Of a stretch of 58,670 nt of DNA, positions 52,404 to 58,511 are shown piece by piece. The notes beneath the pieces were generated by a model that did no database searches, was not told where the DNA came from, and saw only the letters and a program-made list of their open reading frames with translations. Each line of letters opens with the position of its first letter. The first letter of the stretch is position 1. This stretch comes from Elusimicrobia bacterium GWA2_62_23. Lineage in GTDB: Bacteria > Elusimicrobiota > Elusimicrobia > Elusimicrobiales > UBA9959. The stretch spans positions 1 to 58,670 of the forward strand of contig MGTV01000017.1 in the NCBI GenBank assembly GCA_001799635.1, read 5' to 3'. Both the position numbers and the translations under genes were made by a program.

Positions 52404-52521
52404 GTATACTATCAGTGTAGTCTTCCTTGTAATTTGGGGAATTGGCCCCAGAGTATCCACAATCCGGCCGTAACCGGATGTATCCAGGGAAAGCAAAGGT
52501 TTGTTTTGCTTTCCCTTTTTT
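52404..52521 (+). ncRNA. Candidate small RNA ending in a strong terminator
   Basis: A rightward intrinsic terminator at 52486-52520 has no rightward gene upstream of it; both neighbouring upstream genes read left. A possible promoter (TTACGC 17 bases before TATACT at about 52404) would give an RNA of about 105 bases. It contains a small hairpin (ATCCGG at 52462 with CCGGAT). Speculative: the rest of the 52269-52582 gap shows no gene, and the open frame on the other strand is not convincing. Confidence 0.35.
52486..52520 (+). terminator. Strong intrinsic terminator before the peptide cluster
   Basis: A perfect twelve-pair stem (52486-52497 with 52505-52516) and a seven-base loop, followed by TTTTT. 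It insulates the cluster at 52583 or ends a small RNA. Confidence 0.9.
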
Positions 52522-52582: not shown

Positions 52583-52780
52583 ATGACTAACAAAGATGCG
52601 GTTATCGCGGCCTTTCTGGTGTCTCTCGGGGCGTTGTCTGTCGCCCAAGCCTCTAGTTATGTTTCGGCTATCTCTCAGGATGAGAAGACCGTTCTTATGT
52701 CGACGATAGCAGTGGCTGGGGATGCGTGCGGCACCGGTGGTTCTTGCGACGAATCATTGGCTGTCCCTACCCCGAAGTAA
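52583..52780 (+). CDS. Small exported peptide, candidate RiPP precursor
   Basis: 65 residues behind AAGGGG, seven bases from the ATG. The N-terminus is signal-peptide-like (AVIAAFLVSLGALSVAQA), a short middle reads SSYVSAISQDEKTVLM, and the C-terminal third is rich in Gly and Cys (GDACGTGGSCDES), ending VPTPK. Two cysteines six residues apart could be crosslinked or thioether-bridged. It is followed after 26 bases by a radical SAM gene, the usual arrangement for a precursor and its modifying enzyme. The family is not recognised. A simple secreted peptide is the alternative. Confidence 0.6.
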   Translation: MTNKDAVIAAFLVSLGALSVAQASSYVSAISQDEKTVLMSTIAVAGDACGTGGSCDESLAVPTPK

Positions 52781-52806
52781 TTCCTGTTTCGCGTCTTTGT
52801 TGTGAT

Positions 52807-53670
52807 ATGAACAGCAAAATGGCGCATTCTTTAAGTATAGTTCTTGGCTATGCCTGCACTTTCAAGTGCAGGCATTGTGCTATTGTCGGGCCTCCGCAGC
52901 AGTGTTTGTCGGAGCCAGAGATTCTATTTCTAACGGAATCAATTAACAGGTTCCGTTTTGATACCCTAATCTTGGTAGGCGGCGAACCGACCCTGTATAT
53001 TCCCGTCATTAACGATTTGTTGTCCGCGGTGGCGTATACTCCCCGCGTGGTCATTACCACAAACGGGGGCTTTGCCGTTACCGAGGAACTTGCGGAGAAG
53101 ACACTGCGGCAAATTACCGGCCTGAATGAGGTCCAGCTTTCATACGACAGGTTCCATAGTGAATTTCTTGCGATGGAAAATGTTGAGAACCTCAAAAAAG
53201 CGTGCGACCGTCTCGGCTTGCGGTTCAGCGTGGTACTGACGATACAATCCCCGCTAGACCTCGCTCTGATAGCGCAACTGCGAAAATCCGGGGAGTTCAC
53301 CATAGGGGTGCAGAAAGTGGTCCCCTACGGGGCCGCGAAAGAGAATAAAATATCATACGCATATCCGTCGTTTGACAAAGAGATTCTCACGCAGTATTGT
53401 CCGAACAAGGATGGCATGGTGTACATGTGCGGACGCGGGTTTTCCGTGTGTGACATCCCCCGCCGCGGCTATGAGAAGTATTTCTTCCGGACCGTGGAGC
53501 AATTGCGGGAAAGCGGGTTCTACCGGCAGATCACGGCCTGTTCTTTCGGGGAGCTCGCAAAAAAGGTCGGGTTGCACGAGGGGACATTGTCTGCGGAGCA
53601 TTCCTGCCCGTGCGTTTTATGCGCGGAGCTCTTCTCCGGGCCGGAAGAAAACAGCCAGCTTCGCCCCTGA
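52807..53670 (+). CDS. Radical SAM enzyme, peptide-modifying candidate
   Basis: 287 residues from ATG 52807; ATG 52819 is an alternative and no ribosome site is obvious. The [4Fe-4S]-SAM motif is Cys17, Cys21 and Cys24 (GYACTFKCRHC). GGEP occurs in LILVGGEPTLYIP, and QLSYDRFHSEFL matches the SxDxFH strand of peptide-modifying radical SAM proteins. The C-terminal third has extra cysteines (YCPNKDGMVYMCGRGFSVC, then HSCPCVLCAEL) suited to a SPASM/twitch-type auxiliary cluster. It directly follows the candidate precursor. Substrate and reaction are unknown. Confidence 0.85.
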   Translation: MNSKMAHSLSIVLGYACTFKCRHCAIVGPPQQCLSEPEILFLTESINRFRFDTLILVGGEPTLYIPVINDLLSAVAYTPRVVITTNGGFAVTEELAEKTLRQITGLNEVQLSYDRFHSEFLAMENVENLKKACDRLGLRFSVVLTIQSPLDLALIAQLRKSGEFTIGVQKVVPYGAAKENKISYAYPSFDKEILTQYCPNKDGMVYMCGRGFSVCDIPRRGYEKYFFRTVEQLRESGFYRQITACSFGELAKKVGLHEGTLSAEHSCPCVLCAELFSGPEENSQLRP

Positions 53671-53680
53671 GGTTTTGTGA

Positions 53681-54367
53681 ATGATCAAGCAAACGGATAT
53701 CAAAGGTCTGAACGCGTATTATAAGGCTGAAGCGATTTCGGATATAACCGAAGAGGCTATCCGGGGCGGCTTTTCGGCGGCTGCCTGTGCGAAATTGATA
53801 TTCAGCGTTCCTTGCGGCGATACCGGCGAGTACGAGACGCTGAAAAAGAATATCCCGGACGCCTATTTGGCCAGAATACAGTATCGCGCAGCTGCCGGGC
53901 AGCTCATCCTGCCGCCATGCCTCGGGGAGGCGACGGCCGTGGCCGTAATGCCCGGAGAGATATCGTTCATCCGCGAGCTCTATCTCCGGAGAGTGATGGA
54001 GTTCTACGAGGAATGGAAGCCCAGTATAACTCCGGACAGGATTGCCTTTTCACGGGATGTCGCGCAATACAGGCTGCTGCCTGAGAATTCGTTGTGTCTT
54101 GCAAAACAGTCTTCTCCCGTGGGGCTGACTACCGTATACGAGCGGGAGGAGCCGGGAACGTATTGCCTTAATTGGATCTGGTTCAGCCCGGAACTGTCTG
54201 TGCATGAGCGCTCGCGGGCGCATTATCTTACGGTTGAATGGCTGGCGAAGAAAGGACGGGCGATAGACGCTTTTGTGGATTCTTTCAACTTTAGATCGAT
54301 AAGATTTTTCCGAAAAACAGGGTTCAGCCCCGTATGCCTGCATATAACAAAAAAATCCTTCCTTTAA
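53681..54367 (+). CDS. GNAT-like acyltransferase
   Basis: 228 residues with GAGG eight bases upstream. The C-terminal half has the GNAT pattern: a beta strand and helix (YCLNWIWFSPELSVHERSRAHYLTVEW, shown in part) and the closing DSFNFRSIRFFRKTGFSPV, in which the FFRKTGF turn is characteristic. The N-terminal half is less clear (ISDITEEAIRGGFSAAA). It could acylate the modified peptide or confer self-protection. It lies ten bases after the radical SAM gene and its end overlaps the next gene. Confidence 0.65.
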   Translation: MIKQTDIKGLNAYYKAEAISDITEEAIRGGFSAAACAKLIFSVPCGDTGEYETLKKNIPDAYLARIQYRAAAGQLILPPCLGEATAVAVMPGEISFIRELYLRRVMEFYEEWKPSITPDRIAFSRDVAQYRLLPENSLCLAKQSSPVGLTTVYEREEPGTYCLNWIWFSPELSVHERSRAHYLTVEWLAKKGRAIDAFVDSFNFRSIRFFRKTGFSPVCLHITKKSFL

Positions 54368-55731
54368 TATTGGTCGGGCTGACCTTCGCCGCTGGTTGCC
54401 GGGGCGCCAGTGAGAACTGGGTTGTCCTGGCCAATAGCCTGCCGTCCCAGGTGCGCACAAACCAGGCGTTCGTCAGCATAGTGCTGTATATATTGAAGCA
54501 GACCCACGAGCCGCTGTTGCGCAGGGATGACGGCGAAAACTATTCTTCCAGAATACTGCGTAAATGGGAGCGAAGCTTGGATTTCAGGGGGTTTGCCTTT
54601 TGCCCGGATCAATCACTGCGGTTTAATGCCCGGACGAAATTTACCGCCGGGCTGCTGGGAAAACACCTGGAGAGCGTAACGAGGAAATTGGACGATTCCG
54701 CCGTCCTGGAAATCCGGGATAGTTGCGTAAACGTGAAGTTCGCGCGCAGCCATCCAAACTACCTGTTCTATTTGACCCAGTACGAAAACGCTCCAACCGT
54801 AGAGAGGGACGGCGTTGTTGAGGACGGGCTCGGCCCGTTCATGGTGGAAAAGGTCGAAAAAAACATAATACTGCTGACGCGGAAAGTGCCGGTGAGGCGC
54901 GGTTACAACACGATAGCCGTGCGGCAAAACTCTCCGGATATCTCCGCGGGAGACCGTGGGATCGCGGATAGGAATTTGATTAGCGGAATGGAGCTGCCCC
55001 TTTCTGCCCAAGGAGACTATCAGGGCTTTTATAGTACAGAACTTAGGACTGGTGACCTGATAATTAATCATCTTGATCCGGAGATGCGCAGGATGATATA
55101 CAACTGTACGGACATTAAAATGCTGCGCAGTTCCTTTTTTCCGTCAAAAAGCGATTTTTTCGACGTGGTATCAGTGCTCCCAATAGGCGTGCCCGGGGCG
55201 AAACAGGGGGAGCCAAGGCAGGATTGCGGCGCGGCTCTTGCCGCGCTGCCGCACAAACATGGCCCCATTATTTTTTCTAACTGGCGTACTGATAATGACG
55301 AGCAGATGAATCGCTTTGCGGAGGCGTTCTTTAAGAGGACTGGAGTGGGAATGCGGGTAGTACACTATCCTCCCGCAGAATTTAAAAAAATGCTCCATTC
55401 CCGGCCCCGGCCATACCATCTGACAATAATGCACCTGGATGCCGTTGTGCCCGATCATCGGGCCTTTCTTGAAGTTTTTTTCCGTAAGGACGGATATCTG
55501 GATTTTGACCTTCCGGTCGGCGCAAAGTTTTTTGAAGGCATGCTCAGCGCGGAGGATGTCGGGCGCAAACATGCACTCGCCATGTCGGTCGTGGGCGAGT
55601 TGGCCAAGGAGGCCGTAGCGCTCCCGCTATACCAGAGTGTCCGCGTATTCTGGTATCCGAAAAAGATTGAAAACATCGTGGTCGGAAAAGGGTTCCTTGA
55701 ATATCCAGAAATAGGTGATTTTCGATGGTGA
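54334..55731 (+). CDS. Peptide-binding lipoprotein (SBP family 5-like)
   Basis: 465 residues. A lipoprotein signal has its lipobox at LTFAAGC (about Cys22). The body resembles extracellular solute-binding protein family 5 (oligopeptide binding): QTHEPLLRRDDGENYSSRILRKW, LRFNARTKFTAGLLGKHLES and GLGPFMVEKVEKNIILLTRK correspond to the usual order of family motifs. No permease or ATPase is nearby, so it is an orphan receptor that might bind the cluster's peptide. The gene starts within the last 34 bases of the GNAT-like gene. The exact start is uncertain because no ribosome site is clear. Confidence 0.75.
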   Translation: MPAYNKKILPLILVGLTFAAGCRGASENWVVLANSLPSQVRTNQAFVSIVLYILKQTHEPLLRRDDGENYSSRILRKWERSLDFRGFAFCPDQSLRFNARTKFTAGLLGKHLESVTRKLDDSAVLEIRDSCVNVKFARSHPNYLFYLTQYENAPTVERDGVVEDGLGPFMVEKVEKNIILLTRKVPVRRGYNTIAVRQNSPDISAGDRGIADRNLISGMELPLSAQGDYQGFYSTELRTGDLIINHLDPEMRRMIYNCTDIKMLRSSFFPSKSDFFDVVSVLPIGVPGAKQGEPRQDCGAALAALPHKHGPIIFSNWRTDNDEQMNRFAEAFFKRTGVGMRVVHYPPAEFKKMLHSRPRPYHLTIMHLDAVVPDHRAFLEVFFRKDGYLDFDLPVGAKFFEGMLSAEDVGRKHALAMSVVGELAKEAVALPLYQSVRVFWYPKKIENIVVGKGFLEYPEIGDFRW

Positions 55732-55847
55732 AGCGTGATAATGCGCAGGGACTACAGATCCATGCCGGTTTTCTATAATGAGAACTGGCTCGCCACTTAA
55801 CCGCTTGTGTGGAATATTGCAATCGAAGGAAACCGCATGGAGAGCAA

Positions 55848-56726
55848 ATGAATAAGACTTTACAGCTTCTGTTGGGGCGGGCAAGCTGCCGGGCGTTTAC
55901 CAAGAGGAAAGTCCCCGCCGCGGTGGTAAAAAATATTATTGAGGCAGGCATTCATGCGCCTACAGGGGGAAATCTTCAGCCCTATTCAATAGTCAAGATA
56001 GAGAAACGGGCTGCTATTAACCGGTTGGCAAAACTGTGCGGACAGCGGTTTATGAAAACGGCTCCTTTGCACCTTGTATTCTGCATAGACCTTTACAGAT
56101 TGAAGCGCTGGGCGAAGATGGAATCGGCTCCTTTCTCCGCTGATCGGGCTCTCAGGCCTTTCTGGATTGCTTTCCAAGATACTGTAATATGTGCCCAGAA
56201 CATGTGTACTGCGGCCGACGCGCTGGGCCTGGGTTCTGTGTATATTGGTCCCATATTTGACAGGATTCCGGAGATACGCAAAATGTGCCACCTGCCCAAG
56301 GGGGTGGTTCCGGTTGTTTCCCTTGTGGTTGGATACCCGTCAATATTCCCCGCCCCGCGCAAGAGGCTTGGCCCGAAAATAGTGGTCCATAACGAGGTTT
56401 ATCGGGATATAAGCGATAAGGAACTGCTTGCGGCTTTTTCTGAAAAGTATAGCGGCTTTAGAAGGGAAATTGCTGTAAAAGACTTGGAGACCCTGCACAG
56501 AGTGTGCCGGCGTGTGCATGGGGCTGCGTTTGCCGAGAAGAGTGTGAGCAGGGCCAAGAGACTCGGCCTGATAAATAGAGCGCAGGTTTATTTCGGGCTG
56601 AATTATCAGGCCGACAGGCTGTTATTTGCCACCCCAACGCAGCTTAAGATGCTGTCGAAGGCAGGCTTATCCTGCTTTTTATCCAGCGCAAAAGTTAAGC
56701 AGGATATTCAACGGCGTGTTGGCTGA
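55848..56726 (+). CDS. Nitroreductase-family flavoprotein
   Basis: 292 residues from ATG 55848, with GGAG five bases upstream. The FMN-binding start GRASCRAFTKRKVPAAVV and AGIHAPTGGNLQPYSIV are typical, and the later GLGSVYIGPI and VVSLVVGYP complete the fold (about 1-195). A C-terminal extension of about 95 residues (from KELLAAFSEKY on) contains several cysteines and basic helices and is unusual. Flavoproteins of this superfamily can oxidise peptide heterocycles in RiPP pathways, or reduce nitro or quinone compounds. Position at the end of the peptide cluster favours the former only weakly. About 116 bases separate it from the lipoprotein gene. Confidence 0.82.
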   Translation: MNKTLQLLLGRASCRAFTKRKVPAAVVKNIIEAGIHAPTGGNLQPYSIVKIEKRAAINRLAKLCGQRFMKTAPLHLVFCIDLYRLKRWAKMESAPFSADRALRPFWIAFQDTVICAQNMCTAADALGLGSVYIGPIFDRIPEIRKMCHLPKGVVPVVSLVVGYPSIFPAPRKRLGPKIVVHNEVYRDISDKELLAAFSEKYSGFRREIAVKDLETLHRVCRRVHGAAFAEKSVSRAKRLGLINRAQVYFGLNYQADRLLFATPTQLKMLSKAGLSCFLSSAKVKQDIQRRVG

Positions 56727-56825: not shown

Positions 56826-58511
56826 TTGAGTGTTTTTACGCGCATACTGGCCTATAACTGGCGGCACTACGCGGCGGCGGTGCTGGTGTTCGTGGCGTTC
56901 TGGCAGGCATTCTCGGCGTTCTCCGCGGTGCGGGTGGCGGACGACAAGCTGCTGACGGCCATGCGGCAGAACGCGGCGTACTTTGAAAAAGCTTTCCTCG
57001 AAGGCGACGTCTTCGAGACGCAGCGCATCATGTGGCGCATCAAGAACGAGAACATAAAGCGCGTCACTTTTCACCCGGTGCAGTTCGAGGGCAGCCGCTG
57101 GATCTTCAAAGAAGCCGTTATCGGCAACCTTTACGACCGGCCGCACGCGCAGCTGACGCATACGGTTCCTTTCATCTCTAACGGCGCGGAACTCGGGCGG
57201 CTGGAGTACGTGATAGACCTGGTGGACGTGAACGCGGCGGTGTTCTACCAGAACTACATGCTGTTCATTACCGTGGTGTTCTTCTTCCTGGGGCTTTTGA
57301 TCCTCTCCAATCTCGGGGCCATACAGACCCTGCTGGCCCTGGAGCGCGCGGTGAACGAGATCAATGCCATAACCACGGCCGGCCGCGGCGACATTATCCG
57401 GGATTCGATCAAAAAGAACATAGCGAGCCTGCCCGCGGGCATTATTGGCACGCCTTTCGCGCAGATGACCGGGCGCATGAGCGACGCGCTGGGCGAAGCG
57501 GCCCGGCTGGAAAGCGAGCTGGCCGTGAGCAAGGCGGTTTCCGACATGGCCGCGCAGGTGGCGCACGATATCCGCTCGCCGCTGGCGGCGCTGGGGGCGG
57601 CGGCGAAAGGGCTTTCCGCGGACGCGGAGCAGCGCAAGCTTATAGAAGGCGCCGTGGGCCGCATGCAGGGCATAGCCGACGACCTGCTGGCCCGCTACCG
57701 GGCGCCGGGCGCGGCGGCGGAGGCGAAAGCGAAGCCGGCGGTGATGCGGTTGGCCGGAATAGTAGAGCAGGTGGTGGAAGAGAAACGCCTGCAGCACGCG
57801 GCCAAGGTTGGGGTTAAGATAAATTTCGAATCGGATGGCGGAGAATTAAAGGCCGCAGTAGAGGCCAAGGAACTACAGCGCGCTGTTTCCAACCTGGTGA
57901 ACAATGCGGTTGAGGCTTTCGAGAAGGGCGGCACGGTGCTGGTGCGGGTGTTCGGGCTGGACGGCCGGGTGCTGATAGCGGTGAAGGACGACGGCAAGGG
58001 GATACCAGCCGATGTTTTAGCCAAGTTGGGCGGCAAGGGCGAGACGCACGGCAAAGCCGGCGGCACGGGGCTGGGGCTTTACCACGCCCGGACTTCGGCC
58101 GAAAGCTGGGGCGGTTCCCTTAAGATAGAATCCGAGCCGGGCAAGGGGACTACGGTCACTATGGAACTGCCGCGCGCAGGCGCTGCGGATAATAAACACA
58201 AAGCCGTGGTGCTGCTGGACGACGACCAATTGGTGCACATGAACTGGCGCATGGCGGCCAAGGCGGCCGGCACCGAGTTGAAGTCTTTCAAAACACCGGA
58301 AGAACTTTCGGCCGCGCAGGAAGGTCTCCCTAAAGATATCCCCATATATATAGACGCCGAGCTGGGCGACGGCGCTAAAGGCGACGAGGTGGCCCAGCGG
58401 CTGCACGAGAAAGGGTTTACCGACATCACCATGGCCACCGGCCATTCCCCGGACAAGTTCGCGGGGCTGTCCTGGCTTAAGGTCAGGGGCAAAGAGCCGC
58501 CCTGGAATTGA
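56826..58511 (+). CDS. Hybrid sensor histidine kinase with C-terminal receiver-like domain
   Basis: 561 residues starting at TTG, supported by GGAG (56815-56818) seven bases upstream. Membrane helices at about 13-33 and 143-165 flank a periplasmic sensor. The DHp helix has phosphorylatable His247 (QVAHDIRSPLAAL). HATPase motifs are NLVNNAVEAF (N box), VKDDGKGIP (G1) and GGTGLGLYHARTSAESWGG (G2). A receiver-like domain (about 455-561) has LLDDDQ and Asp510 in IYIDAELGDG but no clear downstream Lys, so its phosphotransfer role is uncertain. Composition is host-like again, marking the end of the peptide cluster. A strong terminator follows. Confidence 0.9.
   Translation: MSVFTRILAYNWRHYAAAVLVFVAFWQAFSAFSAVRVADDKLLTAMRQNAAYFEKAFLEGDVFETQRIMWRIKNENIKRVTFHPVQFEGSRWIFKEAVIGNLYDRPHAQLTHTVPFISNGAELGRLEYVIDLVDVNAAVFYQNYMLFITVVFFFLGLLILSNLGAIQTLLALERAVNEINAITTAGRGDIIRDSIKKNIASLPAGIIGTPFAQMTGRMSDALGEAARLESELAVSKAVSDMAAQVAHDIRSPLAALGAAAKGLSADAEQRKLIEGAVGRMQGIADDLLARYRAPGAAAEAKAKPAVMRLAGIVEQVVEEKRLQHAAKVGVKINFESDGGELKAAVEAKELQRAVSNLVNNAVEAFEKGGTVLVRVFGLDGRVLIAVKDDGKGIPADVLAKLGGKGETHGKAGGTGLGLYHARTSAESWGGSLKIESEPGKGTTVTMELPRAGAADNKHKAVVLLDDDQLVHMNWRMAAKAAGTELKSFKTPEELSAAQEGLPKDIPIYIDAELGDGAKGDEVAQRLHEKGFTDITMATGHSPDKFAGLSWLKVRGKEPPWN

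What the first reader, a model, noticed from the sequence alone, without database searches (positions are those of the whole stretch)
52583..56726. Unassigned radical-SAM peptide cluster: precursor, rSAM, GNAT, peptide-binding lipoprotein, nitroreductase
Seen: five rightward genes, more A+T-rich than the flanks, begin with a 65-residue exported peptide ending in a Gly/Cys-rich tail. A CxxxCxxC radical SAM enzyme with a Cys-rich C-terminus follows 26 bases later, then a GNAT-like protein, an orphan SBP5-type lipoprotein and a nitroreductase with a Cys-containing extension. Known: radical SAM enzymes beside short Cys-rich peptides commonly make thioether, epimer or carbon-carbon crosslinked RiPPs, and GNAT and nitroreductase-like enzymes occur as tailoring steps. 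Inference: this is a RiPP-like system in which the precursor enters the general secretion pathway and a lipoprotein senses or retrieves the product. The signal-peptide leader and the missing dedicated transporter set it apart from classes I know.
Basis: partly seen in the sequence, partly recalled or inferred. Interest (0 to 1): 0.86.

Follow-up and report, generated by a model that had tools for sequence, protein, structure and literature searches.

The report
Riboswitch-controlled modified-peptide sensing cassette
In a little-known group of bacteria (Elusimicrobia), an RNA switch of a class that detects a DNA building block sits in front of genes for a small exported peptide, an enzyme that probably alters it, a peptide-catching protein and a sensor kinase, which together look like an undescribed signalling system.

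Summary
The five genes are real, but the finding's edges are wrong. Upstream, at 52422-52492, lies a 2'-deoxyguanosine-II (2'-dG-II) riboswitch aptamer (RF03165, 83.5 bits). Its terminator shares six bases with aptamer helix P1, so ligand should turn the operon ON. Downstream, the kinase at 56826-58511 belongs to the unit.

In 29 homologous loci the peptide ORF precedes the radical SAM (rSAM) gene in all 29; a binding protein (SBP) is in 27 and a kinase in 26; the riboswitch is in 21. The rSAM enzyme is a full-length relative of the peptide epimerase EpeE/YydG. The lipoprotein has the oligopeptide-SBP fold. The Gly/Cys tail is not conserved; GNAT is in 13 of 29 loci, nitroreductase in 5 of 29.

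Of 90 riboswitch sites read, 16 carry SBP plus kinase: 6 with this enzyme, 4 with a second rSAM type, 3 YcaO-like, 3 others; one YcaO-like operon is in this same genome.

Best reading: 2'-dG-induced modified-peptide signalling, peptide to SBP to kinase. Everything is computational; modification, export, binding and target are inferred.

The parts
52422..52492 (+). 2'-dG-II riboswitch aptamer (RF03165)
   Evidence: 83.5 bits, gathering score 60, full model 1-71
52487..52521 (+). Terminator (stem 52487-52515, T-run 52516-52521) sharing 52487-52492 with the P1 3' strand; predicts an ON switch
   Evidence: -16.2 kcal/mol for the 29-base hairpin
52583..52780 (+). Small exported-looking precursor peptide, 65 aa, conserved leader and variable tail
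   Evidence: peptide profile hit in 29 of 29 loci; alignment
52807..53670 (+). EpeE/YydG-like radical SAM enzyme, 287 aa
   Evidence: PF04055; EpeE 8ai1 E 7e-22 over profile positions 6-285; fold search
53681..54367 (+). GNAT-like protein, optional accessory gene
   Evidence: PF00583 below cut-off; in 13 of 29 loci
54334..55731 (+). Family-5 solute-binding protein, lipoprotein-like N-terminus, no permease in the cassette
   Evidence: no Pfam hit; SBP5 fold, best E 3.4e-22; in 27 of 29 loci
55848..56726 (+). Nitroreductase, optional neighbour lying between SBP and kinase
   Evidence: PF00881; in 5 of 29 loci
56826..58511 (+). Membrane histidine kinase with a C-terminal receiver-like stretch
   Evidence: HATPase_c and HisKA over cut-off, Response_reg 12.6 bits below cut-off; in 26 of 29 loci

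Best explanation
A 2'-deoxyguanosine-gated peptide signalling cassette. Rising 2'-dG (for instance from DNA breakdown; inferred) binds the leader RNA, stabilises P1 and so blocks the overlapping terminator, and the operon is transcribed. The precursor is modified in the cytoplasm by an EpeE-type radical SAM enzyme, most likely by L-to-D epimerisation at hydrophobic residues of its variable part. It is exported through Sec by its signal-peptide-like leader. The mature peptide is bound by the permease-less family-5 SBP, which signals to the adjacent membrane kinase. Shown by computation: aptamer, overlapping terminator, conserved gene set, enzyme homology, SBP fold, kinase linkage. Inferred: ligand identity in this RNA, the modification, export, peptide-SBP binding, SBP-kinase contact, and the kinase's target.
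For: Aptamer 83.5 bits with terminator overlapping P1. Peptide in 29 of 29, SBP in 27 of 29, kinase in 26 of 29 rSAM loci, riboswitch in 21 of 29. SBP and kinase hits 3-18 bases apart in 23 of 26. EpeE is the best solved relative by sequence and by fold, ranks 1-9; the residue aligned with its catalytic Cys223 is Cys in all 29 unbroken copies. SBP fold like OppA with a PhrE-derived peptide and AapF with a signalling peptide. Leader distances track rSAM (r 0.70), tail hypervariable (mean identity 0.12). Only one Pfam SBP_bac_5 in the own genome, in the sister cassette. 16 of 16 SBP-bearing riboswitch sites also have this kinase.
Against: No experiment. EpeE Asp210 is matched by Asp in only 6 of 31 rows. 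TIGR04078 scores 46.7 bits against a cut-off of 300. The tail-SBP correlation is not significant once rSAM distance is accounted for (p 0.11). Six loci with room for it lack the riboswitch (L067, L071, L188, L193, L195, L201); L067 also lacks the kinase. Two loci (L207 plus strand, L213) show this SBP and kinase with no rSAM of the family in the upstream stretch read. No output regulator is in the cassette. Signal peptide and lipobox were judged by eye; 2 of 9 aligned SBPs lack the lipobox Cys.
Confidence: 0.6

Rival explanations
1. An epipeptide-like toxin, boosted when 2'-dG rises (killing of kin or neighbours); SBP and kinase serve self-sensing or envelope-stress sensing rather than communication.
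For: The EpeE-made epipeptide is antimicrobial and triggers envelope stress (PMC8326336 passages). The enzyme here is its relative.
Against: No immunity, protease or ABC-exporter gene among the cassette genes; constant SBP-kinase pair; highly variable tail, though toxins vary too.
Confidence: 0.2
2. A nutrient or envelope sensor: SBP and kinase detect environmental peptides or another ligand, and the small modified peptide is a separate product or a membrane-bound regulator.
For: SBP5 proteins bind varied ligands; nickel-binding proteins are among the best fold and sequence matches. SBP-kinase pairs without this rSAM exist (L207 plus strand, L213).
Against: Peptide, maturase and SBP travel together in 27 of 29 loci, and sister operons also carry small exported-looking ORFs, some picked by eye.
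Confidence: 0.13
3. The first reader's Cys-based thioether or crosslinked RiPP with GNAT and nitroreductase tailoring.
For: Two Cys in the window tail; Cys in the tail in 11 of 13 loci with GNAT against 7 of 16 without (related loci, and two of the 16 are cut by a contig edge).
Against: 11 of 29 peptides have no Cys after residue 24 and only 3 have two. Closest solved enzyme is an epimerase. GNAT and nitroreductase are optional.
Confidence: 0.05

Closest known systems
Epipeptide locus epeXEPAB (yydFGHIJ) of Bacillus subtilis
   Same: EpeE-like radical SAM enzyme of similar length with the radical SAM Cys motif and the position of Cys223 kept
   Different: Signal-peptide-like precursor; no protease or ABC exporter among the cassette genes; SBP, kinase and riboswitch added; TIGR04078 cut-off not met. 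Features of EpeX, EpeP and EpeAB are recalled
2'-dG-II riboswitch regulons
   Same: RF03165 aptamer over the gathering score. [quoted passage not shown]
   Different: That paper places the class in Bacteroidetes; here 32 of 198 genomes of this phylum have matches, and some sit before modified-peptide, SBP and kinase operons
LuxPQ-type binding protein plus sensor kinase (recalled, no call)
   Same: A periplasmic-type binding protein paired with a hybrid-like membrane kinase
   Different: Family-5 oligopeptide-type SBP, ribosomal peptide and maturase encoded alongside, riboswitch gating
Agr and ComQXPA peptide pheromone systems (recalled, no call)
   Same: Modified peptide with variable tail encoded next to its kinase; variable signal part, conserved kinase part
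   Different: Unrelated maturases, an SBP between peptide and kinase, riboswitch gating, no separate response regulator seen in the cassette

Membership tests
2'-dG-II riboswitch (RF03165) | Covariance-model score over the curated cut-off | tested here: met
   83.5 bits against 60, full model
2'-dG-II riboswitch (RF03165) | Junction-proximal G-C pair in P1 (named in PMC8872408, passages) | tested here: met
   G8-C64 of the aptamer in the alignment, read by eye
2'-dG-II riboswitch (RF03165) | Binds 2'-deoxyguanosine | not testable with these tools
   needs in-line probing or similar
Epipeptide (EpeE) RiPP clusters | EpeE-type radical SAM enzyme with Cys at the Cys223 position | tested here: met
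   8ai1 E 7e-22; Cys in 29 of 29 unbroken copies
Epipeptide (EpeE) RiPP clusters | NCBIfam TIGR04078 cut-off | tested here: not met
   46.7 bits against 300
Epipeptide (EpeE) RiPP clusters | EpeP-like protease and EpeAB-like ABC exporter in the operon (recalled) | tested here: not met
   none among the window's cassette ORFs
Epipeptide (EpeE) RiPP clusters | D-residues in the product | not testable with these tools
   needs co-expression and mass spectrometry
SBP family 5 | Pfam PF00496 cut-off | tested here: not met
   no Pfam hit at E 1
SBP family 5 | Family-5 SBP fold | tested here: met
   50 listed Foldseek matches, best E 3.4e-22; model pLDDT 78, pTM 0.64
Peptide pheromone two-component system | Exported peptide gene next to its own sensor kinase | tested here: met
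   peptide 29 of 29, kinase 26 of 29 loci; linkage only, export not shown
Peptide pheromone two-component system | Peptide changes kinase activity | not testable with these tools
   needs a kinase assay

The most novel reading that the evidence does not exclude
A new kind of bacterial communication module: a constant SBP-kinase chassis, gated by a riboswitch for 2'-deoxyguanosine, onto which different RiPP chemistries (EpeE-like, a second radical SAM type, YcaO-like) and unrelated exported peptides are exchanged, giving many private modified-peptide signals tied to DNA breakdown or scavenging.
Probability: 0.4. Interest if true: 0.92.

Novelty: new variant of a known kind. Interest (0 to 1): 0.8.

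Why it matters
It would join a nucleoside-sensing riboswitch to modified-peptide signalling, a link that my ten paper searches did not show. It suggests a role for 2'-dG-II riboswitches, extends EpeE-like peptide maturases to the Elusimicrobia with a different export logic, and offers a natural set of swappable peptide chemistries beside one kinase type. Each link can be tested with purified parts.

Tried and rejected
Thioether RiPP as the general chemistry: rejected, Cys is not conserved in the tail. Nitroreductase and GNAT as core: rejected. Nitroreductase as a mere passenger: doubtful, since the five family members most like the window's all lie beside such cassettes, while the other 7 of 12 listed places do not. 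Peptide-SBP co-evolution: raw r 0.34, not significant given rSAM distance. GNAT tied to Cys in the tail: a trend in related rows only. Phage, plasmid, E. coli and viral collections, PADLOC and PHROGs: not searched. Relatives outside this phylum: one genome-contig scan with the single protein (2 loci, both Elusimicrobia) and otherwise only this phylum and its subgroups. Literature: ten searches. Searches found no paper; the 6 papers (Elusimicrobi plus riboswitch) and the 2 (riboswitch, RiPP, radical SAM, precursor peptide) were judged from listings only. Matyjasik and Batey 2019 was not held; Weinberg 2017 was not seen.
Full report
WHAT IS THERE. Two parts were missed. First, Rfam finds a complete 2'-dG-II riboswitch aptamer at 52422-52492 (83.5 bits, gathering score 60); the peptide's ATG starts 91 bases past its end. 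Second, the histidine kinase at 56826-58511 belongs to the set.

THE SWITCH. The 3' strand of aptamer helix P1 (52485-52492) shares six bases with the 5' arm of a terminator (52487-52515, then six T; -16.2 kcal/mol). The two cannot form together, so ligand-stabilised P1 should prevent termination: an ON switch (inference). One search lists 108 RF03165 matches in 32 of 198 phylum genomes; I read 90 of them. In 70 of 90 a terminator-like stem starts in the P1 3' strand (shuffled mean 10.7, largest 16), and in 10 more a ribosome-site-like stretch is complementary to the aptamer core (shuffled mean 0.5, largest 4); 10 show neither. The shuffles keep base content only and the detector is permissive. 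The ligand is inferred from family membership.

HOW CONSERVED. A profile of nine rSAM relatives finds 31 strong places (E 6.5e-49 or better) in 25 of 235 genomes of the class. I read 29 loci holding 30 of them. The small peptide precedes the rSAM gene in 29 of 29; 20 of these were not used to build the peptide profile. The SBP is in 27 of 29 and the kinase in 26 of 29; L066 and L197 end at a contig edge, and L067 lacks the kinase. In 23 of the 26 the kinase hit begins 3 to 18 bases after the SBP hit; in the other three (window, L064, L193) about 1 kb lies between, holding a nitroreductase. The riboswitch lies upstream in 21 of 29; in L199, which has two rSAM copies, it precedes one of them. 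L184 and L190 start too near a contig end to hold it; L067, L071, L188, L193, L195 and L201 lack it at the gathering score, and permissive searches upstream in L067 and L071 found none. By chance a riboswitch would lie within 500 bases upstream of a given gene of this genome with a probability of about 0.0005. Many loci are related, so the counts are not independent.

THE ENZYME. The best NCBIfam match is YydG (TIGR04078), 46.7 bits against a cut-off of 300. Against solved structures the family profile matches EpeE/YydG nearly over its length (8ai1, E 7.3e-22; next kind, viperin, 4.3e-7), and the predicted model (pLDDT 77) has EpeE in fold ranks 1 to 9. In the alignment C215 falls on the Cys223 that PMC8326336 (passages) gives as the proposed hydrogen donor; it is Cys in all 29 unbroken copies, and C198, C269 and C272 are Cys wherever the copy is complete. 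That these three serve a second cluster is my reading. Against: the position of EpeE Asp210 is Asp in 6 of 31 rows. So 'works like an epimerase' is likely (about 0.6), not shown.

THE PEPTIDE. The 29 peptides share a lysine-bearing start, a hydrophobic stretch mostly ending in A, and a YVxxLSxxEKxxL-like stretch, then diverge. Mean pairwise identity over 23 loci: leader 0.50, tail 0.12, rSAM 0.40, SBP 0.38, kinase sensor region 0.70. Leader distances follow rSAM distances (r 0.70; 0.53 given SBP), which fits leader recognition. Tail distances follow SBP (0.34) and rSAM (0.36) but not the kinase sensor (0.01); the tail-SBP link is not significant given rSAM (p 0.11). Cys occurs after residue 24 in 18 of 29 peptides.

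THE BINDING PROTEIN AND KINASE. The lipoprotein-like ORF has no Pfam hit; its predicted fold (pLDDT 78) matches family-5 SBPs (best E 3.4e-22), among them OppA with a PhrE-derived peptide, AapF with a signalling peptide, and also nickel-binding proteins. No permease is in the cassette. In the whole genome Pfam's SBP_bac_5 finds one protein, the SBP of the sister cassette on contig C41; that search misses SBPs as divergent as the window's. The kinase is 62% G+C, rSAM and SBP 52-53%, and the kinase is richer than the SBP in 24 of 25 loci, as if variable signal parts were exchanged beside a resident kinase (inference).

SISTER OPERONS. Among 90 riboswitch sites 16 have an SBP, and all 16 also have a kinase of this kind (the profiles were built from some of these sites). 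One further site (G088:C41) has the kinase without an SBP, and two have only weak kinase hits. Six of the 16 carry the EpeE-like enzyme, four a second rSAM type (PF04055; 'SPASM-like' is my label), three match a YcaO-like profile (its L074 member scores 19.2 bits against a Pfam cut-off of 25.7), one (L132) passes the YcaO cut-off, one (L151) looks YcaO-like by eye and one (L098) is unclassified. The own genome has one of these (C41, L074); its kinase is 91% identical to the window's over residues 230-561. Small exported-looking ORFs accompany several: for instance three tandem Gly-rich ones behind the riboswitch in L217, and others in L207, L211 and L214; some were picked by eye. The picture is not uniform: of 20 further kinase loci, seven show no SBP of these kinds (L209, L212, L218, L219, L220, L224, L225), L208 was too short, L207 (plus strand) and L213 have SBP and kinase without this rSAM upstream, and only 3 of 16 loci scanned carry the riboswitch.

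OPTIONAL GENES. GNAT is in 13 of 29 loci. Others have a beta-lactamase-fold protein (Pfam-tested in L070 only), other genes, or nothing in that place. Nitroreductase is in 5 of 29: between SBP and kinase in three, upstream of the riboswitch in two.

READING. The simplest account is a 2'-dG-induced modified-peptide signal read through SBP and kinase. It works like a peptide pheromone system and uses an EpeE-like enzyme; it is not a member of the epipeptide clusters by the features tested (no exporter or protease, model cut-off not met). The toxin and nutrient-sensor readings stay open.

PAPERS. PMC8872408, PMC9295807, PMC8326336 and PMC10352776: passages only. All others: search listings. PMC8872408 already lists a signal-receiver-domain gene after 2'-dG-II RNAs, so a signalling link as such is in print. 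LuxPQ, Agr, ComQXPA and the EpeX/EpeP/EpeAB features are recalled. None of the listings or passages that I saw describes this system; the library lacks most subscription journals.

Noticed in passing
L074 (own genome C41:28000-33831): A second 2'-dG-II operon in the same genome: small ORF, SBP_bac_5 protein, YcaO-like protein and a kinase of the same kind.
   Followed up: partly
90 RF03165 sites, clusters: Other genes recurring behind 2'-dG-II aptamers: a cluster of 13 followed by FtsX-like and M23-peptidase genes, 10 metallo-beta-lactamase-fold proteins, 9 Rce1-like proteases (family names from one representative each).
   Followed up: partly
about 10 sites, e.g. G000:C6:30743-30813: Translational-type platforms: a GGAGGTGGAT-like ribosome-site stretch complementary to the aptamer core.
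   Followed up: partly
L217:4672-5765: 2'-dG-II aptamer followed by three tandem Gly-rich small ORFs with hydrophobic N-termini, then SBP and kinase.
   Followed up: no
L201 (G275:C62): Apparently decaying cassette: rSAM gene in two pieces and no riboswitch over the gathering score, although its peptide differs from that of L200 by one residue.
   Followed up: no
L199 (G266:C81): Two rSAM copies of the family in a row with the riboswitch and peptide between them.
   Followed up: no
window:12-88 +: Group II intron Rfam match (RF00029, 46.6 bits) at the contig start.
   Followed up: no
window:33554-41164 +: 2536-aa protein with Kelch (10 stretches) and TIG matches, beginning in an A+T-rich stretch (43-45% G+C at 32-34 kb).
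   Followed up: partly
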